Assembly: GCA_022819645.1 (NCBI GenBank)
Contig: JAJEGU010000082.1
Coordinates: 1 to 57,518, forward strand
Source: Pseudomonadales bacterium
GTDB taxonomy: Bacteria; Pseudomonadota; Gammaproteobacteria; Pseudomonadales; Pseudohongiellaceae
Direction: 5' to 3'
Length of the DNA: 57,518 bases
Shown in pieces: positions 36,009 through 48,015 of this stretch. How positions within the stretch are numbered: position 1 is the stretch's first letter; every line of letters starts with the position of its first letter. The position numbers were made by a program, and so were the translations under genes. The notes below the pieces were generated by a model. That model worked only from the letters and a program-made list of their open reading frames with translations. It did not search any database and was not told where the DNA came from.

Positions 36009-37745
36009 TCACATCCTCTCCAAAGTCTGGATTCCCAACAAATCCAGTCCCTGTTCCAGCGCCTGTTCGGTGAGCCGGGCCAGGGCGAGCCGGGAGTTTC
36101 TGACTTCGGGCTCTGCCTGGAGTATGGGACAGGCTTCGTAGAAGCGCATGAAGCTGCCGGACAGTTTGTACAAATAGTTGCAGAGAGTATTGGGGTAGCA
36201 TTCCTTTGCCACCAGATTGACGACTTCAGGTAGTTGCAGGGTTTTCAGTAACAGGGCCCGTTCTTCGGCCGCCGAGATTCGCAGCAGGCTGGAAGTTGAA
36301 GCTTCGGCGGGCAGCTTGCGCAGGATGCTCTTGATTCGGGTGCCGGCGTAGAGCAGATACGGCGCGGTATCGCCTTCGAATGACAGCATGCTCGACCAGT
36401 CGAAGACATAGTCGCTCATGCGGTTCTTGCTCAGGTCGGCGTACTTGACCGCGGCGATGCCCACGGTTTCGGCAATCTGCCGCCGCTGTTCCTCGTCCAG
36501 TTCCGGGTTCTTTCCAGAAACCAGATCGTAGGCCCGCGCCATCGCCTCATCGAGCAAATCGGCGAGTTTTACCGCATCTCCAGAACGGGTCTTGTAGGGC
36601 TTGTTGTCCTTGCCCATGATGGTTCCGTAGGCGATATGCTCCAGCGATAGCCTGTCGCCCACCATTCCCGCCGCCCGGGCCACGGCGAACACCTGCTGGA
36701 AGTGGAGCGACTGGCGGGCATCCACCACGTATAGCGAGCGATCCGCCCTGAGTTCGTCCGCGCGTAGCTTCACGGCGGCGAGGTCGGTGGTGGAATAGAG
36801 ATAGCCGCCGTCCGATTTCTGCACGATGACGGGCAGGGTTTCGCCGTCCTTGCGCTTGAATTCCGGCAGAAAGACACAGCGGGCGCCATCGTTTTCCTGC
36901 AACAGCCCCGTCTCGTCGAGTTGGCGGATAATACCTTCCAGATCCTTGTTGTAGCGGCTTTCGGCATCGAGGTCGGAGTGGCTCAGGCTTACCTGAAGCC
37001 GGTCATAAATGTTCTGGCAGTGGTTCAGGGATTCGTCAATGAAGCGCCGCCAGGCTGCCAGGGTTTCCGGGTCTCCGCCTTGCAGCTTCACCACGCTCAG
37101 GCGGGCCCGGCCGGCGAAATCCGGGTCGGCGTCAAAACGGTTCTTGGCGGCGCGGTAAAAGGATTCCAGGTCAGCCAGTTCGGCTTGCAATACGTTTGCG
37201 TCCTCGCCGAGTTCGCGCAGATAAGTGATCAGCATGCCGAACTGGGTTCCCCAGTCACCCACATGATTCTGGCGAATCACCTCGTGGCCGAGGCGCTCAA
37301 GCACCCGAACCAGACTGTCGCCGATGACCGTGCCGCGCAAATGCCCCACGTGCATTTCCTTGGCGAGATTGGGCGATGAATAATCGACGACGATTTTCTG
37401 TGGCTCGGGAGCATCCGGGATCAGCCTGTGGGGCGCGGCGAGCACCTGATTGCCGCGTTCGAGCAGGGCGCTGTCGGCAATCCGGATATTGATGTAACCG
37501 GGGCCGGCGACTTCCGCCGCGGCGATCAGGCCTTCGCTATCCCTCAGGCCTGCAATGGTGGCTGCGGCCACATCCCGGGGTTTGCGCCCGGCGCGCCCCG
37601 CCGCGGCCATGACGCCATTGGCCTGATAATCGCCGAACTCCGGTCGCGAAGCGGTGATCACATTGGGGTCGCAATCCGCCATGCCACAGGCTTCGCTCAG
37701 GGCCGCGCCCAGCATACGCGTCAATTGTCCCTTGCAGTTTTCCAT
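36009..37745 (-). CDS. argS: Arginyl-tRNA synthetase
   Basis: This class I synthetase (578 residues) charges tRNA-Arg. The HIGH motif is SSPNLAKEMHVGHLRGT, preceded by the N-terminal tRNA-recognition domain with EFGDYQANGVMAAA. The KMSKS region appears as the looser NKPYKTRSGDAVKL, as in other bacterial ArgS. The C-terminal DALR anticodon domain ends ALEQGLDLLGIQTLERM. The start chosen is the ATG of MENCKGQL (37745) with AAGG upstream; a GTG at 37772 would run into the promoter region of the divergent gene. It is divergent from the large repeat protein, with 150 bp between. Confidence 0.95.
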   Translation of the reverse strand: MENCKGQLTRMLGAALSEACGMADCDPNVITASRPEFGDYQANGVMAAAGRAGRKPRDVAAATIAGLRDSEGLIAAAEVAGPGYINIRIADSALLERGNQVLAAPHRLIPDAPEPQKIVVDYSSPNLAKEMHVGHLRGTVIGDSLVRVLERLGHEVIRQNHVGDWGTQFGMLITYLRELGEDANVLQAELADLESFYRAAKNRFDADPDFAGRARLSVVKLQGGDPETLAAWRRFIDESLNHCQNIYDRLQVSLSHSDLDAESRYNKDLEGIIRQLDETGLLQENDGARCVFLPEFKRKDGETLPVIVQKSDGGYLYSTTDLAAVKLRADELRADRSLYVVDARQSLHFQQVFAVARAAGMVGDRLSLEHIAYGTIMGKDNKPYKTRSGDAVKLADLLDEAMARAYDLVSGKNPELDEEQRRQIAETVGIAAVKYADLSKNRMSDYVFDWSSMLSFEGDTAPYLLYAGTRIKSILRKLPAEASTSSLLRISAAEERALLLKTLQLPEVVNLVAKECYPNTLCNYLYKLSGSFMRFYEACPILQAEPEVRNSRLALARLTEQALEQGLDLLGIQTLERM

Positions 37746-37767
37746 CGCTTTCGCCTTCGAAAATCCT

Positions 37768-37795
37768 TTCACTTATCAGAAAATCACCGTATTAT
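37768..37795 (+). promoter_or_regulatory. Candidate promoter of the serralysin-like gene
   Basis: TTCACT (37768-37773), 16-nt spacer, TATTAT (37790-37795). The leader contains a 7-bp inverted repeat CAGTGGC/GCCACTG (37825-37831 and 37849-37855) of unknown purpose. Confidence 0.4.
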
Positions 37796-37895
37796 ACTGT
37801 CACTGAATAGAACAGGGATGAAAGCAGTGGCATCCGGGGGAAGGACTGGCCACTGTAATCGAAAGCAGTATCAGCAAACAGGAGAAAGATGTTTT

Positions 37896-40800
37896 ATGAG
37901 CAAGCCTGAGGGGACGCTTGACCAAATCGCCGAGTACCTGATACTCGGCTACTTCAGGGACGTTACCGGCCCAAACGCCACTTCCACCAAATGGTCTGAT
38001 TCGGAGATTCGGGTCGATTTTTCCCGCCTCGACGCCAAAGGCCAGTTCCTCGCCCGCACCGCGCTCGACATGTGGTCAAGCGCCACGGGGCTCGCCTTCA
38101 GGGAGGTGAGCATCGACCGTGACGATGGCCGCAGCGACAATGATCGTGGCATTCTCTTTCAATATGGCCCCGCGACGAAAGCGACGTGGCTGCAATCCGG
38201 TTCGGAGGGATGGATTTCCTGGAACATCGAGCTGCTCAAATCCACGCAATCCAATGCCGTGGGTACGAAAGAATCGGGCGAATATACGGTCATCGGACCA
38301 AGGGCGCTGTATCACTTCATTCATGAGATCGGCCACGCGTTGGGGCTAGGGCATCCAGGCAACTACAACGGTAGCGTCAGCTACCAGGGCGATGCCAAGT
38401 TTGCCAACGACAGTGTGCAAATTTCGGCCATGTCCTACTTCGGGCCGACGGAAAACCCGACACTGAAAGCAAGCCTTGCGCGTCCCGCCACCCCGATGAG
38501 CGCCGATATTCTCGCCATTGAAAAACTCTACGGCGATAGTAACGCGATGCGTACCGGCGACACGGTCTACGGCTTTAATTCGACCGCGGGCGGCTTTCTC
38601 GATGACCTTGCCGGGCACATGAACGCCGGCAAAATCTTTAGCTTCACGCTGATCGATGATGGTGGCAACGACTCCTTCGACTACTCCGGCGCATCACAGG
38701 GCAGCCGAGTGGACTTCAATCCCGGCGCCGTCTCCGACGTCTTTGGCCGCAAGGGCAACATGGTCATCTACAAGGACACCGTCATTGAGCATTTTATCGG
38801 CGGCGGCGGCACGGACAATGTCACCGGAAACGATGCGAACAACATGCTCTTCGGCGGCGCCGGTGACGACACGCTTGACGGCGGCGCCGGCGACGACATC
38901 CTGATCGGCGGGATTGGCGCCGACACGCTCACCGGTGGAGGCGGTTCGGACACCTTCCGCTATACATCCGGCACTTTCGGCGCCGACACGATTGCGGACT
39001 TTGAAGATGGCTCGGACATCATCGATCTTGGCGCTGCAGGACTGCAATTCACCGACCTGACCATCAGCAATCGCGCCCTGGACAAGATCATCGATGCGGG
39101 CTCCGGCAATACCATCACCCTTACCGGGCAGGCGGGCGCCACCATTGATGCGACCGACTTCTCCTTTACCGGCGGGACACTTCAAGTTTCCATTGAAGAT
39201 GCAAGCATCGCGGAAGGCGGCGTCGCGAGCTTTGTTCTGCGCCTGTCGGAGCTGTCCCACAAAGCTGTCAGCGTGGACTGGCGCACGCAGGATGGCACTG
39301 CCGTCGCTGGCGGGGATTTCACTGGTGTCAGCGCATGGCGGACTGTTACCTTCGCGCCGGGTCAGCTTGCCAAGCGCATTGCGGTGCAGACATTCAACGA
39401 TGATGTGTCCGAGCCCAATGAGACCTTCAGCATTCAACTCGGCAATCCGGTGGGCGCGACAATCAGTGATGACACGGGCAACGCGGTGATCGTCGAGAAC
39501 GAAAACCCCACCGTATCGATCAGCGATGGCACGGGTAGCGAAGGCGGCTTTGTAAGGTTCCAGGTCAGCCTTGACAAGATCTCGCAAGCAGACGTTACCG
39601 TGAATGTCGCCGTAGACAATGACAGCGCGGAGGAAGGCGCCGAGAACCATGTCGATTTCAAGCTTCCCGCCGAGAGCGACATCACCATCCCAGCCGGTCA
39701 ACGAAGCGCCGAATTCAAGGTGCAGACTTTTTACGACAAACATGTCGAACCCGATGAGACCTTCTCGGTGCGCTTGCATTCTCCGGACGATGCGTATCCT
39801 CTTAATCGGTCCGCCGCGACGGGAACCATACAAAACGTCGACGCGTCACAATTGCCCACGCCGCCAGGCATTTCTCTCGCGGATGTCTCTGTCATGGAAT
39901 CCGATGGCGTGGTGCGGGTTCCGATTCATTTCGACAGGCTGGTTGAACCGGGCGAGCGAATCACTTTCAGGATGCGCCTGCTCGACGGCAGTGCCGAGAG
40001 TGCGCGCGATTTCTGGCACATGGGTTCGGCCCAGGCCACCGAACTGAAGGTCGTTGAAGGCAACGGAACGGACCGGGCGTTTGTTTCCCATCGTTTGGTC
40101 AATGACGAGTATCCGGAAGGCAATGAGCAATTTGTGCTTGAGATATTCAATGTTGACGGCGCCTTCCTCGCCGATGGAACCAGCAGCATCACCATCCTTG
40201 ATGACGATGCTCCCAGGATCCAGCCTTACGTCGCCATTTCCACGAACCCTTCGGCAACCGAAGGCGATCACGCAGTGTTCATGTTGCGTTTGGGGCATCG
40301 GATGCCCCAGGACGTCACCGTCAACTGGTCGCTTGGTGGATCTGGCAGTGCGACAGGCGGCGAAGACTACGACAACAACCCCGCGAGCGGCACTGTCACC
40401 ATACCGGCGGGAAAGCGTACCGCGCCGGTCATTGTGGAAACCTATGCCGACAATGAAACCGAAGGTACGGAAACATTTTCCTTCAGCCTGACATCGGCCT
40501 CCGGAGCGTTGCTGCACCCGGCCCTGCATCATCGCCAGGCCGAAATCCACGATGATGGGATATTTCATCCCGGCATAAGCATCAGTGACGTGACGGTGAC
40601 CGAGGGTGGTACAGCACACCTGTTCGTTACGCTGCGCCACCCGTCGCAAGGTGTCGTCATTGACTGGAGCACGTCCGATGGCACGGCCAGTCAGGGAGAT
40701 GACTATGTCGCCGTCAGCGAGGGGCAGGTAATCATCCCGACGTTCCAGACATCGGCGCGCATCGTCATAGCCACGAATGCCGATAACCTGCTGGAGGGGA

Positions 40801-43800
40801 GTGAGACCTTTACCGTCACCTTGAGCAATCCGCGCGGCAGGGGCGCCCTGAAAGACGCCACCGCCACGGTCACCATTGTCGATGGGCCGACCCCGCCACA
40901 GCTTTCCATCGATGACGTGACGGTCGCCGAAGGCGGGGAGGCGCGGTTCACCGTCAGCCTGGAGAGAACCTCGGCCGAGGATGTCACCTTCACCTGGGCG
41001 ACCTCGGATGGCGCTGCGAAAGACGGCAGCGACTATACCGGCCAAAGCGGTCAAACAGCGACCATTCCCGCGGGCAGGTACAGCGCCAATGTGACGGTGC
41101 AGACCATCAATGATGGTGAGGGCGAAAGGGATGAAACCTTCACCGTGGAACTCAGCAGTCCCGTCAATGCCACCCTCGGTGACGCCAACGGCAAGGCAAC
41201 CATCACCGACAACGATGACGCACCCGACAACAAGTACGCCGCGCTGATCGCCACCCTGAAAGGCTACGCCAGCGAGACGCATTACGGCCAGGACCACGTG
41301 GACCGCTGGATGGAGGCGCTGGCGGGCCTGGGCGAGGACAACGGCTACGATCCCATGACTGTCGCCGAGGCCAATGTCATGGCGGGCACCTATAGCGCCA
41401 GCCGCTGGAACCCGGTGTTGGAGGCACTGAGGGATATCGAGGCGGAAAGAGCGGCGGAGCGGACGGCGAACACATTGCCGGTCGCCTCCATCGACGATGT
41501 GACCGTAACCGAGGGCGGACAGGCACAGTTCACGGTGAATCTGGACAAGACCTGGAGTGACGATGTCACCATGATCTGGAACACGTCTGACGGCACCGCG
41601 ACAGACGGTAGTGATTATACCGGTCAAAGCGGTCAACCACTCACCATTGTCGCGGGTCAGCAAAGCGCCACGTTCAACGTGCAGACAACAGGCGACAGCC
41701 TGGATGAGGACGACGAGAGCTTCACCGTCACCTTGAGCAGTCCCACCAATGCCACCCTCGGTGATGACACCGGCGAGGCCACGATTACCGACGATGATGC
41801 CGCGCCCGCGTTGTCCATCGACGATGTGACCGTCACCGAAGGCGGCGTGGCGCAATTCACCGTCGAACTCGACGCGGTGTCCGGCAAGGACGTCACCGTC
41901 AACTGGGCTACGTCCGACGGGACGGCGACCGCCAGCAGTGACTATACGCCACAGGCGAGTCAATCTGTCACCATTGCCGCAGGCCGGCAAAGCGCGACGG
42001 TGAGTGTACAGACCACGGACGACGGCGACGATGAGAGCAATGAGACATTCACCGTGGAACTCAGCGGCGCCGCCAATGCCACTGTCAGTGACGCCACCGG
42101 CGAGGCCACCATCGTCGACAACGACGATCCGCCCTCCGACAACAAGTACGCCACGCTGATCGCCACCCTGGAAGGCTACGCCGCCGAGACCCAGCACGGC
42201 GATGCCCACGTGACCCGCTGGAAGCAGGCGTTGGCCGGTCTGGGCGTAGACAACGGCTACCACCCCATGACCGCCGATGAGGCCGGGGACATGGCGGATA
42301 CCTATACCGCCAGCCGTTGGAATCCGGTGGTGGAGGCGCTAAAGGAAATTGAGAAGGCGCGCGAAGCGGAGCAGACGGCAAACACACCGCCCGTCGTGTC
42401 CATCGACGACGTGACGGTTACCGAAGGCGGGCAGGCGCAGTTCACCGTGAGTCTGGACAAGACCTGGAGCGATGACGTGACCCTGACCTGGGACACGTCC
42501 GACGGCTCGGCAACGGACGGCGCCGACTACACCGGTCAAAGCAATCAAACGATCAGCATCACGGCAGGGCGGCAAAGCGCCACGTTCAACGTGCAGACAT
42601 CAGGCGACAACCTGGATGAAGACGACGAGACCTTCACCGTCACCCTGAGCAGCCCCACCAACGCCACCCTCGGCGATGACACCGGGGAGGCCACGATTAT
42701 CGACGATGACGCCGCGCCGGCGTTGTCCATCGAGGATGTGACCGTCACCGAAGGCGGCGTGGCGCGGTTCACCGTCGAACTCGACGCGGTGTCCGGCAAG
42801 GACGTGAGTTTTAGCTGGGGCACGTCCGACGGCACGGCGACCGCCAGCAGTGACTATACGCCACAGGCGAGTCAATCCGTCACCATTGCCGCGGGCCAGC
42901 AAAACGCGACCCTGAGCGTGCAGACCACAGACGATGGCGACGGCGAAGCCAACGAAACGTTCACCGTCGAACTCAGCGACGTGGCCAATGCCACGATTGC
43001 CGACGCCAGCGGCGTGGCCACCATCACCGACAACGACAATGCGCCGCCACCGCCGCCGCCGCCCGTCCTGCCGGTCGCATCCATCAACGATGTGACTGTC
43101 ACCGAGGGCGGGCAGGCGCAATTCACTGTAAATCTGGACAAAACCTGGACCAGCGATGTCACCCTGACCTGGAACACATCTGACGGCACCGCGACAGATG
43201 GCAGTGACTACACCGGCCAGAGCGGCCAGACACTCACCATCGCCGCGGGCCAGCAGAGCGCGACGCTCGCCGTGCAGACCACCGACGATTCCGACGACGA
43301 GAATGACGAGACCTTTACCGTCACCCTGAGCAATCCCACCGATGCGACACTCGGCGATGATACCGGCGAGGCCACCATTGAAGACAACGATGACGCTCCC
43401 GACCCCGACCCCGACCAGTGGGACCATAACGGCCTGACCCTGATCGGCACCAACGCGTACGATTACCTTGCGGGAGCGAATGACAACGACCTGATTGACG
43501 GACGCGGCGGCCCCGACTGGATCGATGCCGGCTTTGGCGATGACCGGATGACCGGGGGCAAGGGCGCCGACAGTTTTGTCATATCCAGCAATCGCGGGCA
43601 CGATGTCATCACCGACTTCAGCCCGGATGAAGGTGACACCGTCATCCTGGCAGGCCCCAACTTTCCCAGCTTCGGCCATATGCTGGAGAATCACGTCGAA
43701 CAGGACGGCGATGACGTGATCATCTATACCAGCCCCGATCGTGAGGCGCACAGCCTGACCCTGCTGGACACGCAGCTTTCTGCGCTGGATGCGGCGCAAT

Positions 43801-43994
43801 TCATGATCATCGGGGGATACGGTTCATCGGCTGTCACGTCGGCGCATTTCCAGGCCAGCGCCTTCGCCGGACGGCACGAACCCCTGTACCTGCAAATCAA
43901 CGAATCTCCCGTTGCCGCAGAAGATGCCGATTTCGCCGCGCATTCACTGGCTGTATTCCATCCCGCGGAATCCCAGGGAGACCTGATCTGGTAA
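37896..43994 (+). CDS. Giant serralysin-like metalloprotease with Calx-beta and RTX repeats
   Basis: A 2032-residue protein with no Sec signal peptide. Residues about 1-215 are an M10-type metallopeptidase: zinc motif HEIGHALGLGH (143-153) and Met-turn SAMSYFG. About 215-425 is a serralysin C-terminal region with RTX nonapeptides GGAGDDTLDGGAGDD (about 319-345). Eleven Calx-beta domains follow (about 429-1835). Two copies of an 80-residue helical insert interrupt them (starts near 1112 and 1416). A second RTX-like segment (LIDGRGGPDWIDAGFGDDRM, about 1865) precedes an aspartate-rich end. RTX repeats and absence of a signal suggest type I secretion, but no type I exporter is encoded nearby. 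AGGAGA precedes ATG 37896. Function as protease, adhesin or both is inferred. Confidence 0.85.
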   Translation: MSKPEGTLDQIAEYLILGYFRDVTGPNATSTKWSDSEIRVDFSRLDAKGQFLARTALDMWSSATGLAFREVSIDRDDGRSDNDRGILFQYGPATKATWLQSGSEGWISWNIELLKSTQSNAVGTKESGEYTVIGPRALYHFIHEIGHALGLGHPGNYNGSVSYQGDAKFANDSVQISAMSYFGPTENPTLKASLARPATPMSADILAIEKLYGDSNAMRTGDTVYGFNSTAGGFLDDLAGHMNAGKIFSFTLIDDGGNDSFDYSGASQGSRVDFNPGAVSDVFGRKGNMVIYKDTVIEHFIGGGGTDNVTGNDANNMLFGGAGDDTLDGGAGDDILIGGIGADTLTGGGGSDTFRYTSGTFGADTIADFEDGSDIIDLGAAGLQFTDLTISNRALDKIIDAGSGNTITLTGQAGATIDATDFSFTGGTLQVSIEDASIAEGGVASFVLRLSELSHKAVSVDWRTQDGTAVAGGDFTGVSAWRTVTFAPGQLAKRIAVQTFNDDVSEPNETFSIQLGNPVGATISDDTGNAVIVENENPTVSISDGTGSEGGFVRFQVSLDKISQADVTVNVAVDNDSAEEGAENHVDFKLPAESDITIPAGQRSAEFKVQTFYDKHVEPDETFSVRLHSPDDAYPLNRSAATGTIQNVDASQLPTPPGISLADVSVMESDGVVRVPIHFDRLVEPGERITFRMRLLDGSAESARDFWHMGSAQATELKVVEGNGTDRAFVSHRLVNDEYPEGNEQFVLEIFNVDGAFLADGTSSITILDDDAPRIQPYVAISTNPSATEGDHAVFMLRLGHRMPQDVTVNWSLGGSGSATGGEDYDNNPASGTVTIPAGKRTAPVIVETYADNETEGTETFSFSLTSASGALLHPALHHRQAEIHDDGIFHPGISISDVTVTEGGTAHLFVTLRHPSQGVVIDWSTSDGTASQGDDYVAVSEGQVIIPTFQTSARIVIATNADNLLEGSETFTVTLSNPRGRGALKDATATVTIVDGPTPPQLSIDDVTVAEGGEARFTVSLERTSAEDVTFTWATSDGAAKDGSDYTGQSGQTATIPAGRYSANVTVQTINDGEGERDETFTVELSSPVNATLGDANGKATITDNDDAPDNKYAALIATLKGYASETHYGQDHVDRWMEALAGLGEDNGYDPMTVAEANVMAGTYSASRWNPVLEALRDIEAERAAERTANTLPVASIDDVTVTEGGQAQFTVNLDKTWSDDVTMIWNTSDGTATDGSDYTGQSGQPLTIVAGQQSATFNVQTTGDSLDEDDESFTVTLSSPTNATLGDDTGEATITDDDAAPALSIDDVTVTEGGVAQFTVELDAVSGKDVTVNWATSDGTATASSDYTPQASQSVTIAAGRQSATVSVQTTDDGDDESNETFTVELSGAANATVSDATGEATIVDNDDPPSDNKYATLIATLEGYAAETQHGDAHVTRWKQALAGLGVDNGYHPMTADEAGDMADTYTASRWNPVVEALKEIEKAREAEQTANTPPVVSIDDVTVTEGGQAQFTVSLDKTWSDDVTLTWDTSDGSATDGADYTGQSNQTISITAGRQSATFNVQTSGDNLDEDDETFTVTLSSPTNATLGDDTGEATIIDDDAAPALSIEDVTVTEGGVARFTVELDAVSGKDVSFSWGTSDGTATASSDYTPQASQSVTIAAGQQNATLSVQTTDDGDGEANETFTVELSDVANATIADASGVATITDNDNAPPPPPPPVLPVASINDVTVTEGGQAQFTVNLDKTWTSDVTLTWNTSDGTATDGSDYTGQSGQTLTIAAGQQSATLAVQTTDDSDDENDETFTVTLSNPTDATLGDDTGEATIEDNDDAPDPDPDQWDHNGLTLIGTNAYDYLAGANDNDLIDGRGGPDWIDAGFGDDRMTGGKGADSFVISSNRGHDVITDFSPDEGDTVILAGPNFPSFGHMLENHVEQDGDDVIIYTSPDREAHSLTLLDTQLSALDAAQFMIIGGYGSSAVTSAHFQASAFAGRHEPLYLQINESPVAAEDADFAAHSLAVFHPAESQGDLIW
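41229..43052 (+). repeat. Tandem 912-bp supermodule in the serralysin-like gene
   Basis: Copy 1 (41229-42140) and copy 2 (42141-about 43052) each encode one helical insert (NKYA.LIATL.GYA.ET) plus two Calx-beta domains, 304 codons per unit. They stay similar at DNA level over long stretches. A partial third unit (one Calx-beta domain, no helical insert) follows a polyproline linker. Confidence 0.8.
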
Positions 43995-44976: not shown

Positions 44977-45001
44977 ACCAGTTTAGGGATGCCGTTTGTA
45001 C

Positions 45002-45307
45002 TCACCCTGCCGCGCGCGCTTTCCCATCGGAATCCAGGGATGGAAGTCTGGCAATTGCAGCACCGTTCTTCTGCTCGGCGCACCGGAGCTCAAAGATTTT
45101 CTGCAAGTTGAGCCAGAATTCGGCCGAAGTGCCGAAGAAGCGCCCCAGTCGCAGCGCTGTGTCGCCGGTTATCGCACGCTGTCCATTCAATATCTGTGTA
45201 ATGCGATTGACCGGCACTTCGATCCGTCGGGCCAGTTCAGCCGCGCTCATGCCGAGCGCACCCAGATCCTCGCGCAATGTCTCGCCGGGGTGGATAGGTT
45301 CACGCAT
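45002..45307 (-). CDS. higA: HigA-family antitoxin (XRE helix-turn-helix)
   Basis: The 101-residue protein is a HigA-type antitoxin that would neutralise HigB and repress its own operon. The N-terminus MREPIHPGETLREDLGALGM is diagnostic of the family. The helix-turn-helix is SAAELARRIEVPVNRITQILNGQRAI, and the C-terminal helix GTSAEFWLNLQKIFELR is also typical. The open frame reaches 45337, but the ATG at 45307 has GAGGAA 8 nt upstream. It sits 13 nt after the stop of the higB 3' fragment, the normal higBA spacing. With its toxin split it may be an orphan antitoxin or still guard against other toxins. Confidence 0.88.
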   Translation of the reverse strand: MREPIHPGETLREDLGALGMSAAELARRIEVPVNRITQILNGQRAITGDTALRLGRFFGTSAEFWLNLQKIFELRCAEQKNGAAIARLPSLDSDGKARAAG

Positions 45308-45320
45308 GGCAAAATTCCTC

Positions 45321-45419
45321 TCAGTGGTAATCAACAATTTCTACTTCGATCGGGCCAGGACTTCCATCGGGCCACTTGAAACAGACTCGCCATTGGTCAT
45401 TGATGCGAATGCTGTGCTT
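45321..45419 (-). pseudogene. higB: 3' fragment of higB toxin gene
   Basis: On the minus strand this frame reads KHSIRINDQWRVCFKWPDG, then SPGPIEVEIVDYH and a stop, the classic C-terminal third of HigB/RelE-superfamily toxins. An in-frame stop lies only two codons further upstream, so it has no start of its own. The sequence is also read in another frame as the tail of the exported ORF 45341-45646. The missing N-terminal part is found at 47340-47531 on the same strand. Confidence 0.85.
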
Positions 45420-45646
45420 TCTTCAGCTCCGCTGACCCACACTGCTCTAATGCCCTGCACTTGAAAGCACTGTCCATTCATGTATCTGGCATCTGGCGGA
45501 AAGCTGAACCGCATAGGCGCTTGCCCCGCAAAGCCTTCTTGCTGAAGGGATATGTTCGCACTTTCTGGGATCGTGATGACATCTAAGTTGTAGGCAGAAC
45601 AACTACATAGAGCAGCAAACAAAACAAAGATTGTGGGAAGTTTCAT
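45341..45646 (-). CDS. Exported or lipoprotein-like small protein with displaced 3' end
   Basis: I do not recognise this 101-residue protein. It begins MKLPTIFVLFAALCSCSAYN, a signal sequence with a possible lipobox cysteine (ALCSC), followed by a beta-rich part with RFSFPPDARYMNGQCFQVQG. The ATG overlaps the stop of the Phd-type antitoxin as ATGA. The last 25 residues (about STAFASMTNGES onward) are encoded by the higB 3' fragment in another frame, so the native C-terminus is probably missing or replaced. A coupled gene after a Phd antitoxin is normally a toxin; this one does not look like any known toxin. Confidence 0.55.
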   Translation of the reverse strand: MKLPTIFVLFAALCSCSAYNLDVITIPESANISLQQEGFAGQAPMRFSFPPDARYMNGQCFQVQGIRAVWVSGAEESTAFASMTNGESVSSGPMEVLARSK

Positions 45647-45882
45647 CTGCGAATACCCAAGTGGCGGGCGATGTCTTCAGGCCATTCGTCGAATTCATCA
45701 ACCAGACGGATTTTTCCTTCCAGCAGAACGAGGCAGCGGTTCGGACTCGCGGATTCGAAGCGTGTGATGCGTACAGTGGCACGCCCCATTCGGGTGATGA
45801 TGATGTCTTCGCCCAAGCTGGCGCGTTCTACAATTTCGGCAAACTCCGCTTTGGCCTCACTGAGGCTTAGCACGGTTGGCAT
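45643..45882 (-). CDS. Phd/YefM-family antitoxin without an obvious toxin
   Basis: The 79-residue protein has the Phd/YefM N-terminal DNA-binding fold: LSLSEAKAEFAEIVERASLG followed by EDIIITRMGRATVRITRFE. The C-terminal half (EGKIRLVDEFDEWPEDIARH) would be the toxin-wrapping part. Antitoxins of this kind are normally coupled to a Doc, PIN or RelE toxin just downstream. Here the coupled ORF is an exported protein (ATGA overlap). The PIN toxin lies upstream and already has its own antitoxin. It may be orphaned or have a non-standard partner. Confidence 0.82.
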   Translation of the reverse strand: MPTVLSLSEAKAEFAEIVERASLGEDIIITRMGRATVRITRFESASPNRCLVLLEGKIRLVDEFDEWPEDIARHLGIRR

Positions 45883-45962
45883 ATGGCTTTCTATTTGACC
45901 AAACCAGGTCAGACTGTATCGAAAGGGCTGAAATCAGGCAACGCTTGTGTCATTACTCTTTC

Positions 45963-46388
45963 CTAATGCCGCAAGGGGTTCAAGCACTTAAGGCCCTTGA
46001 AATCCTTTTCGTTATCCGTCACCACTACGCAATCGTTCGCCAGCGCCACCGCGGCGAGGATCATGTCGAGGGCGCTTCGTGGGTAACCCGCGGCTTTTCC
46101 CTCCGCCATCAGGCGCGCCCAGATGAGTCCAGCCCTAGCGTCAAACAACAAAATTCGCCCCGCAAACAGCGCCTGCGGTCCTTCCTCTCCCGCGAACCAT
46201 GTTTCAAGAGCATCTCTCTTGCGACCGCCAGGCAACTCCAGAATGCCGCGCCACACCTCCGCAATGGTGAGCGAAGCGATATACATGTCTTCGTCTTGCT
46301 GCGCGGCCATCCAATCGAGCAATGGCGCAGATGGTCGGGGTTTGACTACATTGCTAATGATGTTGGTGTCGAGCAGAAAGCGCGTCAA
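45963..46388 (-). CDS. PIN-domain ribonuclease toxin (VapC/FitB type)
   Basis: This 141-residue PIN-domain protein is expected to be an RNase toxin cleaving tRNA or rRNA. The acidic residues are visible: D in FLLDTNIISNVV (residue 7), E in LTIAEVWRG (about 44) and D in ALDMILAAVALAND and VVTDNEKDF. PRSALDMILAA and KGLKCLNPL are common in the FitB-like subgroup. Its start overlaps the stop of the upstream antitoxin by 4 nt, as in most such pairs. It lies inside the segment inserted in higB. Confidence 0.88.
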   Translation of the reverse strand: MTRFLLDTNIISNVVKPRPSAPLLDWMAAQQDEDMYIASLTIAEVWRGILELPGGRKRDALETWFAGEEGPQALFAGRILLFDARAGLIWARLMAEGKAAGYPRSALDMILAAVALANDCVVVTDNEKDFKGLKCLNPLRH

Positions 46389-46687
46389 AGTTCAACCCTT
46401 CGTCCATCGACACGCGGACGCGAAAGGTCGAGGTCCGCCCCGACTAGGGGCGAGCGCCGTAGCGCCGCGAGAATTCCTCCCGGCTTTGGCTGCTTGCTCT
46501 CAACAAGCGCCTTTATGGTTGTCCGAGCCTGATCCGCTTCCGGCCCTTCTTCGGACAGACGGCGCGCAAGCCCGCGAAGCAACTCCCGATCCGATTCCAG
46601 TGCCATCACCTCGAATCGTTTGATTCCGCGCTGTGCTAGACGCTCACGGTAGTTTCGGTTCGCTCTTTGCTGAGCGGCATTGGTCAT
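46385..46687 (-). CDS. Antitoxin partner of the PIN toxin
   Basis: The 100-residue protein precedes and overlaps the PIN toxin gene by 4 nt, which marks it as the antitoxin. The N-terminus NRNYRERLAQRGIKRFEVMA looks like a ribbon-helix-helix DNA-binding start. A charged helical middle and the tail SPLVGADLDLSRPRVDGRRV, a typical toxin-binding end, follow. The ATG at 46687 has GGAGG 7 nt upstream; the longer frame to 46777 lacks this support. The AT-rich stretch just upstream (TATATATC, CTATAGA) is the likely autoregulated promoter. Confidence 0.78.
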   Translation of the reverse strand: MTNAAQQRANRNYRERLAQRGIKRFEVMALESDRELLRGLARRLSEEGPEADQARTTIKALVESKQPKPGGILAALRRSPLVGADLDLSRPRVDGRRVEL

Positions 46688-46796
46688 GATCGGCCTCCAA
46701 TCTATAGCCAGATATATACACCAAAACTGTATTGCCCGCAAGCGAGGAGTGGCATCCGAGGGTGGGGGCCGACTCAACTAAGGATTTGAAGTCGGT

Positions 46797-47270
46797 CTAT
46801 TCGCAATAGCCTTCATTGGCCCGCAGATATTCAAGTATGAATCGATCTAGATACTCGGAAACACTATTGATTATGTCGTCTGCAACCTCTCCTGAATCGG
46901 TATTGGTTGCGGCTCCATAAAATCCATACCCTACGACCGTGCCGGGCATTTCTGCACCATACGAATCAGTGAGGACTTTTCGAAAATCCAGAGAGAGCAT
47001 GTAAATCGTCATTTCACTGCCTAAATCGACATCAATGAAAATAAATAACTCTGGATATATGAAGTCCCCGTAAATCCTGGCGGCTCTCATTCGACTTTCA
47101 GCCATCGTTTCCGCCCGACCGACGATATTCAGACTTTCAGCATCTTCAGTGCCAGCGACTACAAGATCAACCAAACCACACCGATTAAACAACGCGGCGT
47201 AATTGACATCCTGTGCTACCGTCATTCCGGGTAGCATGGTCAGTAGGCCAATCAGCACGGTGGGCAACAA
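46797..47270 (-). CDS. Exported protein of unknown function fused to a higB remnant
   Basis: I do not recognise this protein. The frame is open from 47549, but its first 70 codons are the higB 5' fragment and its leader. The distinct part begins near a TTG at 47270 (GTG 47258 and ATG 47237 are alternatives), giving a signal peptide LLPTVLIGLLTMLPGMTVAQ. A mature part of about 137 residues with two cysteines and segments LFIFIDVDLGSEMTIYMLSL and DIINSVSEYLDRFILEYLRA follows. Without a good ribosome binding site, it may be translated only as a HigB-N fusion. Base composition is more AT rich than the neighbours. A CCGACT/AGTCGG stem after the stop may be a terminator. Confidence 0.5.
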   Translation of the reverse strand: MLPTVLIGLLTMLPGMTVAQDVNYAALFNRCGLVDLVVAGTEDAESLNIVGRAETMAESRMRAARIYGDFIYPELFIFIDVDLGSEMTIYMLSLDFRKVLTDSYGAEMPGTVVGYGFYGAATNTDSGEVADDIINSVSEYLDRFILEYLRANEGYCE

Positions 47271-47339
47271 ACTTTTGGTGATGGAAGTCCAATTAGTATT
47301 TGAGGTTAGGCTATTGGACCAAAGTGACCGCAACCCGTC

Positions 47340-47531
47340 ACTCCACTGCCCATTTCGTCGACCCTTAAGTGCCTTCAGGCGGTTGCCCGACCTTTCCAGG
47401 TCGCGCAGCCCCGTAGCTGCGTCAAGTTGGTCCAGCTTGCGTGACGCCGTTCTGGCAAAACCCGAAAATGCCGCGACTCGTTGCCCAAGATGGAACACAG
47501 CAGCCCTTTTGTTCGCGAAGCTGACAATCAC
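47340..47531 (-). pseudogene. higB: 5' fragment of higB toxin gene
   Basis: From a GTG at 47531 the frame reads (M)IVSFANKRAAVFHLGQRV, then KLDQLDAATGLRDL and GNRLKALKGRRNGQWS, the N-terminal two thirds of a HigB-family toxin. At the point where the family continues SIRINDQWR, it switches to unrelated sequence. The continuation is found 1.93 kb away at 45321-45419. Together they give about 95 residues, the usual HigB length. Confidence 0.85.
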
Positions 47532-47549
47532 AGCGTATTCCAAGTCCAT

Positions 47550-47954
47550 TACAACGAATCGCCGTCAAATTTAAGTGGAAATCCGTTCTACGTCAAGCGC
47601 GAACCTTTGGGACTTGGAAATGGCCCTGAATCGGTCGTTTTTGATCTCTGTCGTTGCGTGACGGTTCCGGTCTGACGGAATCCGGATTGTTTTTTCCGTT
47701 TTCAGAATGTTCACCGCGATTTTCGGGCAAGATTCCCTCTCCGCAGACACGACCGGCGGATACGAAGCGCAGCTTCGTGCGCGGTCCCGAGCTATGCTTG
47801 GTGGCTGGGCCAGCAAGAGTGGGGAGCAGCAAAGTTCATAATGTTCCGCCAGAGACGGCGGTAAACGCCTCCGGCCCAAGGGCAGCCACTCGCTGCACAC
47901 CGCCTGTCAGTAAACAGCGAGATGCCCATTCTTTTCTCAAATCGTTTAGCGTTT
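47550..47954. other. Intergenic region between the island and rpmF
   Basis: No gene is supported in these 405 bp. It contains a fragment of the modular hairpin repeat (ACGAAGC-GCA-GCTTCGT, 47762-47778; 20 bases identical to 5655-5674). A weak stem (TCCGG/CCGGA) before TTTTTT at about 47665-47696 is also present. The gene yceD, usually just before rpmF, is absent. Confidence 0.5.
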
Positions 47955-47983
47955 TTGACACCGGCCCATCACATCTCTATCAT
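47955..47983 (+). promoter_or_regulatory. Sigma70 promoter of the rpmF-plsX-fab operon
   Basis: TTGACA (47955-47960), 17-nt spacer, TATCAT (47978-47983), followed by TGCGCGCCAATCG. The start would be near 47990, giving a 25-nt leader. Confidence 0.82.
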
Positions 47984-48015
47984 TGCGCGCCAATCGCCCA
48001 AGCTCAGGAGCTATC

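What the first reader, a model, noticed from the sequence alone, without database searches (positions are those of the whole stretch)
45321..47531. higB toxin gene split by a 1.93-kb block of other toxin-antitoxin and exported-protein genes
Codons 1-64 of a HigB frame (ending NGQWS) lie at 47531-47340, and the remaining 32 codons (starting HSIRINDQW) lie at 45419-45321, just before an intact higA. Both are on the same strand and together give normal HigB length. Between them lie a PIN toxin with its antitoxin, a Phd antitoxin and two exported ORFs, all in the same direction. One toxin-antitoxin operon has apparently been invaded by another cargo block, with no visible transposase. This could reflect a cassette-like mobile unit that targets toxin genes.
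Basis: partly seen in the sequence, partly recalled or inferred. Interest (0 to 1): 0.8.

Follow-up and report, generated by a model that had tools for sequence, protein, structure and literature searches.

The report
Toxin-antitoxin operon broken by foreign DNA
A borrowed bacterial toxin-antitoxin operon was cut in two by a 1.9-kb piece of foreign DNA that carries other toxin-antitoxin genes; the break is real and unusually clean, but it looks like a one-off gene-wrecking insertion rather than a new mobile cassette.

Summary
The two fragments match residues 1-64 and 64-93 of one HigB (59/64 and 29/30 identical to relative G022). Three congeners (G022, G057, G021) carry uninterrupted higBA elsewhere. 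Against them the insert is 1,927 bp (45414-47340), no target base is lost, and AG (CT on +) stands at both junctions. Six of eight relatives compared have rluC and rpmF 80-453 bp apart, without this block, so higBA itself arrived laterally; close HigBs occur in MAGs labelled as several phyla.

The cassette idea fails. The insert is a mosaic: vapBC and the Phd gene have separate relatives in unrelated places. The Phd gene lacks the PIN partner it has in G030. The second exported ORF is cut by the junction; its two best full-length relatives run on about 75 residues. I found no terminal repeats beyond chance, no attC-like site in the window, and no integron integrase or Ku in the genome.

Best reading: recent illegitimate capture of foreign DNA that broke higB and left higA, vapBC and an orphan antitoxin. 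Mechanism unproven.

The parts
44986..47626 (-). higBA module as acquired (promoter, higB, higA), interrupted by the insert; sits between rluC and rpmF
   Evidence: Pieces 44986-45413 and 47341-47618/47626 align to contiguous higBA blocks of G022 (L039) and G057 (L038); not at this place in relatives
47568..47596 (-). promoter-like site of the higBA module: TTGACG, 17 nt, TAAATT; the TTAYG-N5-CGTAA inverted repeat that overlaps it in 22 of 39 relatives is altered here
   Evidence: Consensus scan, 9 of 12 (1 found, 2.0 expected in shuffles, so weak alone); CTTGACGTA upstream of higB in 24 of 39 relatives aligned
47340..47531 (-). HigB N-terminal piece, codons 1-64 (possible earlier ATG at 47549)
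   Evidence: PF05015 positions 23-65; 59/64 to G022 HigB
45414..47340 (-). 1,927-bp insert, GC 0.527 against 0.609 for the window; AG at both junctions
46797..47333 (-). ORF1, small exported protein (by eye); its frame is continuous with the HigB N piece (open frame 46797-47549)
   Evidence: Relatives in G038, G310, G021, G037 at 27-32% identity, from residue 36-48 to 177/178; frame
46385..46690 (-). VapB-like antitoxin of the PIN toxin (no family hit; assigned by position and synteny)
   Evidence: Overlaps the start of vapC; the pair is 83% identical as DNA to G037:C41
45963..46388 (-). VapC-type PIN toxin, intact frame
   Evidence: PF01850 52.6 bits, cut-off 23.6; NF047863 56.9 bits, below its cut-off of 140
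45643..45882 (-). Phd/YefM antitoxin without a partner toxin (orphan)
   Evidence: PF02604 31.4 bits, cut-off 29.8; in G030 a PIN toxin follows, here ORF2 follows
45341..45646 (-). ORF2, exported protein (by eye) truncated by the left junction; codons after about 77 are out-of-frame higB DNA
   Evidence: Relatives G029 (183-codon frame) and G012 (189) continue about 75 residues further
45321..45413 (-). HigB C-terminal piece, codons 64-93 and stop, no ATG, GTG or TTG in frame
   Evidence: PF05015 positions 64-91; 29/30 to G022 HigB; frame
45002..45307 (-). HigA antitoxin, intact
   Evidence: TIGR02607 94.4 bits, cut-off 47.7 (for the frame 45002-45337); 97% to G057, 96% to G022; dN/dS 0.02-0.10

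Best explanation
A higBA toxin-antitoxin module that moves between bacteria landed between rluC and rpmF. Later, and probably recently, one 1,927-bp fragment of foreign DNA was captured inside higB at codon 64 without loss of target sequence. The fragment was itself a patchwork: an exported-protein gene, an intact vapBC pair, a Phd antitoxin without its PIN toxin, and the first half of another exported-protein gene. The insertion should kill HigB: the C piece has no usual start codon, and the N piece lacks the last 29 residues. HigA stays intact, with a ribosome-binding-like stretch before it (by eye). The old higB promoter region now leads into a HigB-ORF1 fusion frame and on through vapBC, phd and higA. 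I think the fragment entered by illegitimate joining (microhomology of at most 2 bp), not as a dedicated cassette. Shown: the split, the single ancestry of both halves, the exact junctions, the mosaic make-up, the truncated ORF2, the absence of higBA from this place in relatives. Inferred: the joining mechanism, the order of events, loss of toxin activity, and read-through transcription.
For: Complementary halves of one HigB. Uninterrupted higBA in G022, G057 and G021 and exact junctions. Of 8 relatives compared at rluC, 6 show both flanks 80-453 bp apart with no hit to the block; in one the flanks align only 826 bp apart (also no hit), and in one the contig ends, so it cannot tell. HigB relatives of 72% identity or more (best segment) in 39 of 80 listed loci, from MAGs labelled Alpha- and Gammaproteobacteria, several Acidobacteria lineages and Rhodothermales. 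In an alignment of 39 loci (38 of those plus L157 at 60%) homology falls to background outside promoter-to-higA-stop. Insert GC 0.527 against 0.609. Separate relatives of vapBC and phd. ORF2 cut at the junction. No terminal inverted or direct repeat beyond shuffles. No Ku, no integron integrase, no attC-like site. dN/dS of the broken N piece is 0.08-0.11 against relatives, like 0.09-0.14 between intact copies, so the break is recent or the test too weak.
Against: Loss of zero target bases is tidier than I would expect of illegitimate joining. All captured genes point the same way as higBA, and the frame stays open across the N junction (chance about 1 in 2 and at most 1 in 3). A 2-bp shared core is also what a serine recombinase or an IS110-type element would leave (recalled); by simple arithmetic 2 or more shared bases arise by chance in about 16% of joins, so it decides nothing. 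Absence of Ku removes one known end-joining route. The assembly is a MAG and no second genome with the same junctions was found.
Confidence: 0.6

Rival explanations
1. A recombinase or transposase supplied in trans (2-bp-core serine recombinase, or an IS110-type element with a CT core) moved the block as cargo and left the shared dinucleotide.
For: No target loss and AG/CT at both ends. That serine integrases and IS110 elements use 2-bp cores is recalled, not tested.
Against: No recombinase seen in the insert; ORF2 is cut by the left end; arms of target and insert ends no more alike than chance (114 and 597 of 1000 shuffles reach the observed score); block not found elsewhere.
Confidence: 0.2
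2. Several steps: a larger element entered higB and was later trimmed and patched, so the present ends are not the original ones.
For: The insert is a mosaic; the PIN partner that follows Phd in G030 is missing.
Against: Later trimming would rarely end exactly at the original target base on both sides.
Confidence: 0.13
3. A cassette-like mobile unit that targets toxin genes.
For: TA-rich insert inside a toxin gene, co-directional.
Against: End inside a gene; no attC-like site in the window, no IntI in this genome; relatives of its parts not seen inside toxin genes in the 5 regions judged by eye; none of 80 listed HigB matches ends at codon 64.
Confidence: 0.04
4. Assembly or binning artefact.
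For: MAG-like contig set (85 contigs); no reads available.
Against: No N in the window; a shared 2 bp is too short for a k-mer misjoin (general knowledge); both outer flanks align with congeners.
Confidence: 0.03

Closest known systems
HigBA type II toxin-antitoxin systems (toxin-first, RelE-like HigB, HTH HigA)
   Same: Gene order, HigB-like profile match in two complementary parts, HigA equivalog over cut-off
   Different: Toxin is split and cannot be made as one protein from this locus
Chromosomal TA modules in plastic intergenic insertion loci, e.g. ccd between folA and apaH (where REP sequences also occur) or TA between relA and mazG (PMC7167474, passages read)
   Same: higBA lies between two conserved genes, absent there in relatives, beside dispersed repeats
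   Different: Here a second TA-bearing piece lies inside the first toxin gene, with exact breakpoints
Integron gene cassettes carrying TA genes (recalled)
   Same: Small co-directional TA genes without their own transposase
   Different: No attC-like site in the window, no integrase found in this genome, an end inside a gene

Membership tests
HigBA TA system | HigA antitoxin of the HigA equivalog family | tested here: met
   TIGR02607 94.4 bits, cut-off 47.7
HigBA TA system | Intact HigB toxin upstream of higA | tested here: not met
   Two pieces, each below the PF05015 cut-off of 27 bits (22.9 and 20.8), 1,927 bp between them
VapBC TA system | PIN-domain toxin | tested here: met
   PF01850 52.6 bits, cut-off 23.6
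VapBC TA system | Recognised VapB antitoxin family upstream | tested here: inconclusive
   ORF overlapping the vapC start has no Pfam family at E up to 1 but is conserved with vapC in G037
Phd/YefM TA module | Antitoxin domain | tested here: met
   PF02604 31.4 bits, cut-off 29.8
Phd/YefM TA module | Partner toxin beside it | tested here: not met
   Followed by truncated ORF2; PIN toxin follows in G030
Integron gene cassette | attC site | tested here: not met
   0 pairs of RYYYAAC and GTTRRRY with at least 6 of 7 complementary bases, 30-140 nt apart, on either strand of the window; a simple pattern, not a covariance model
Integron gene cassette | IntI in the genome | tested here: not met
   TIGR02249: 0 matches in G000, genome 97.7% complete
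DDE transposon or IS | Terminal inverted repeats | tested here: not met
   30-, 50- and 100-nt ends: 962, 358 and 656 of 1000 shuffles reach the score
DDE transposon or IS | Target duplication of 3 bp or more | tested here: not met
   Only AG shared
Serine-recombinase or IS110-type insertion | Shared 2-bp core at both ends | tested here: inconclusive
   AG present but expected by chance in about one join of six
Serine-recombinase or IS110-type insertion | Recombinase gene carried or supplied | not tested
   No such hit among the insert's ORFs; the genome was not searched for these families

The most novel reading that the evidence does not exclude
TA-laden fragments are inserted with a 2-bp AG/CT core by a recombinase acting in trans, so that one TA module becomes the landing site of the next and the promoter of the first drives the captured genes under HigA control.
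Probability: 0.06. Interest if true: 0.7.

Novelty: new member of a known kind. Interest (0 to 1): 0.3.

Why it matters
How TA modules move and integrate is called unelucidated in a 2020 review (PMC7167474, passage read). This locus gives one exact, base-level pair of breakpoints for a TA-bearing fragment, with the uninterrupted module known from three congeners, plus about 39 close higBA loci in MAGs of several phyla on which module borders can be measured. It also shows a toxin gene broken while its antitoxin and a neighbouring TA pair persist.

Tried and rejected
Integron cassette: no attC-like site in the window, no IntI in this genome. Transposon: no terminal repeats. End joining by Ku: no Ku found. 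Searches for the block's own proteins elsewhere: ORF1 and ORF2 gave no plasmid hit and no viral hit; ORF1 gave no genome-contig hit (ORF2 was not scanned there); neither gave anything beyond the own genome in 244 genomes drawn across the order. Distant relatives appeared only within the genus: at E up to 0.1, 11 of 84 genomes for ORF1 and 21 of 84 for ORF2, own genome included; many of these are weak (at E up to 0.001, 6 of 84 each, own included), one ORF1 hit (G324) covers only 35 residues, and two of the ORF2 hits (G022, G021) are only the higB-derived tail. VapC gave no viral relative. PADLOC gave one weak hit, HigA at E 0.0053. Weak end hairpins seen by eye were not pursued. Literature: five searches (listings only, at most 10 rows each) showed no title on one TA module split by another; the library is open-access PMC only, so this is no proof of absence from print. 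For the border alignment I used 39 of the 80 loci and dropped 41, among them L170 (74%).

Full report
What was checked. The finding says that a higB gene lies in two pieces with 1.93 kb between them. Both pieces are real. On Pfam's HigB-like profile the N piece covers positions 23-65 and the C piece 64-91. Each alone was compared with the HigB of the congener G022: 59 of 64 and 29 of 30 residues identical, meeting at residue 64. The N piece's next best matches are G057 (83%) and G021 (80%). The C piece fits G022 and G021 equally.

Where intact copies are. HigA of the window is 97%, 96%, 86% and 84% identical to copies in G057, G022, G021 and G037 (the last cut by a contig end, 83 residues); 38 of 97 genomes searched, own included, have some HigA match. 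In G022, G057 and G021 higB and higA are uninterrupted. Homology with the window covers the module only; the G057 copy, for example, stands near a nucleotidyltransferase/HepT-like pair (naming by eye).

Exact junctions. Aligned with G022, window 45413 and 47341 fall on neighbouring target positions with a 2-bp overlap, AG in the sense of higB. So 1,927 bp are extra and nothing is missing. AG may be a 2-bp duplication, a recombination core or chance; simple arithmetic gives about 16% for two or more shared bases in a random join.

The outer site. The rluC protein is found in 62 of 68 genomes at E 1e-60 or better, own included. Eight relatives were compared around it (L075-L082; 8 of the 29 fetched). 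Six show both flanks 80-453 bp apart with no hit to the higBA block or insert. In L082 the flanks align 826 bp apart, also without such a hit. In L081 the contig ends, so it says nothing (three of the sites are aligned). The whole block of about 3 kb is therefore most simply an addition in this lineage. Beside its promoter end lies a truncated copy of a dispersed repeat (47620-47765) and a second, short and abundant repeat (47761-47824).

The higBA module as a traveller. A scan of genome contigs with the three intact HigBs gave 139 confirmed loci, 80 kept; 39 of the 80 are at least 72% identical over the best segment. The record titles of these name Alpha- and Gammaproteobacteria, several Acidobacteria lineages and Rhodothermales; several isolate names look like sponge or reef metagenomes (recalled, not tested), and misbinning of MAGs cannot be excluded. 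In an alignment of 39 loci (L120-L157 and L161; 38 of the 39 above plus L157 at 60%) the conserved stretch runs from about 70 bases before higB to the higA stop and falls to background outside. The stretch between promoter and higB is itself little conserved. CTTGACGTA stands upstream in 24 of 39, and a TTAYG-N5-CGTAA inverted repeat over it in 22 of 39; the window keeps the first and not the second. This is what an ordinary promoter-plus-operon TA unit looks like.

What the insert is. In coding order: ORF1, a small exported protein (by eye) whose frame continues from the HigB N piece and whose relatives (27-32% identical) in G038, G310, G021 and G037 cover it from residue 36-48 to the end; a VapB-like gene and a PIN toxin, 83% identical as DNA to a pair in G037; a Phd antitoxin, 82% identical to one in G030, where a PIN toxin follows; and ORF2, whose first 77 codons resemble exported proteins of G029 and G012 that go on for about 75 more residues. 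In the window ORF2 stops being itself at the junction and ends in out-of-frame higB DNA. So the left end cuts a gene, and the Phd gene stands without a toxin. The parts have separate relatives in unrelated places. In the five regions examined outside the own genome (G037, G030, G018, G021, G095), judged by eye from ORFs, none lies inside a toxin gene; G037 and G030 reach a contig end within 90 and about 910 bp, and in G095 the pair stands near an AbiE-like pair (naming by eye).

Mechanism. No transposase seen, no terminal repeats beyond shuffles, no target duplication of 3 bp or more; no attC-like site in the window and no integron integrase in this genome, although 15 of 58 genomes searched have one over the cut-off; no Ku. 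I commit to illegitimate capture of a DNA fragment, about 0.6 likely, with a recombinase acting in trans as the main rival. The tidy junction is the best argument for the rival.

Consequences. HigB cannot be made whole from this locus: the C piece has stops upstream and no usual start codon in frame. HigA is under purifying selection against relatives (dN/dS 0.02-0.10). The broken N piece still shows 0.08-0.11, much as between intact copies (0.09-0.14), so the break is young or the test is too weak. A promoter-like site upstream of higB is still there, but a scan of this kind finds 2.0 sites by chance, and the inverted repeat over it is altered. Read-through into vapBC, phd and higA is therefore possible but not shown.

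Verdict. A true case, with base-level breakpoints, of one TA operon broken by DNA that carries another. It is a new example of known TA turnover, not a new kind of element.

Noticed in passing
47620-47765 and 47761-47824: Two dispersed repeats abut the promoter end of the higBA block: a truncated copy of a longer repeat also in G030, G018 and G022, and a short abundant one (32-bp exact copies on G000 C84 and C12).
   Followed up: partly
L109 2441-2520 (G000:C23) and L106 3187-3400 (G018:C69): At a matching place (queC/queE side, ATPase gene; named by eye) G000 keeps an N-terminal scrap and G018 a C-terminal scrap of a vapC related to the one in the insert: a TA locus decayed in two ways.
   Followed up: partly
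L120-L156, L161, L170: HigB relatives of 72-99% identity occur in MAGs labelled as several phyla; in the 38 of them aligned, homology is limited to the promoter-higBA unit.
   Followed up: partly
37428-43994 (+): Open frame of 2,188 codons with a HEIGHALGLGH metalloprotease motif and many Calx-beta-like and calcium-binding-like repeats (by eye).
   Followed up: no
G000: The integron-integrase model, which rings below its cut-off in all 14 control genomes (presumably on XerC/D-type recombinases), gives no match in G000 at E 0.001 (also none in G021 or G030): possible lack of XerCD.
   Followed up: no
44977-48015: In the close congeners compared rluC is followed directly by rpmF-plsX; maf and yceD, which stand between them in E. 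coli (recalled), were not seen there.
   Followed up: no
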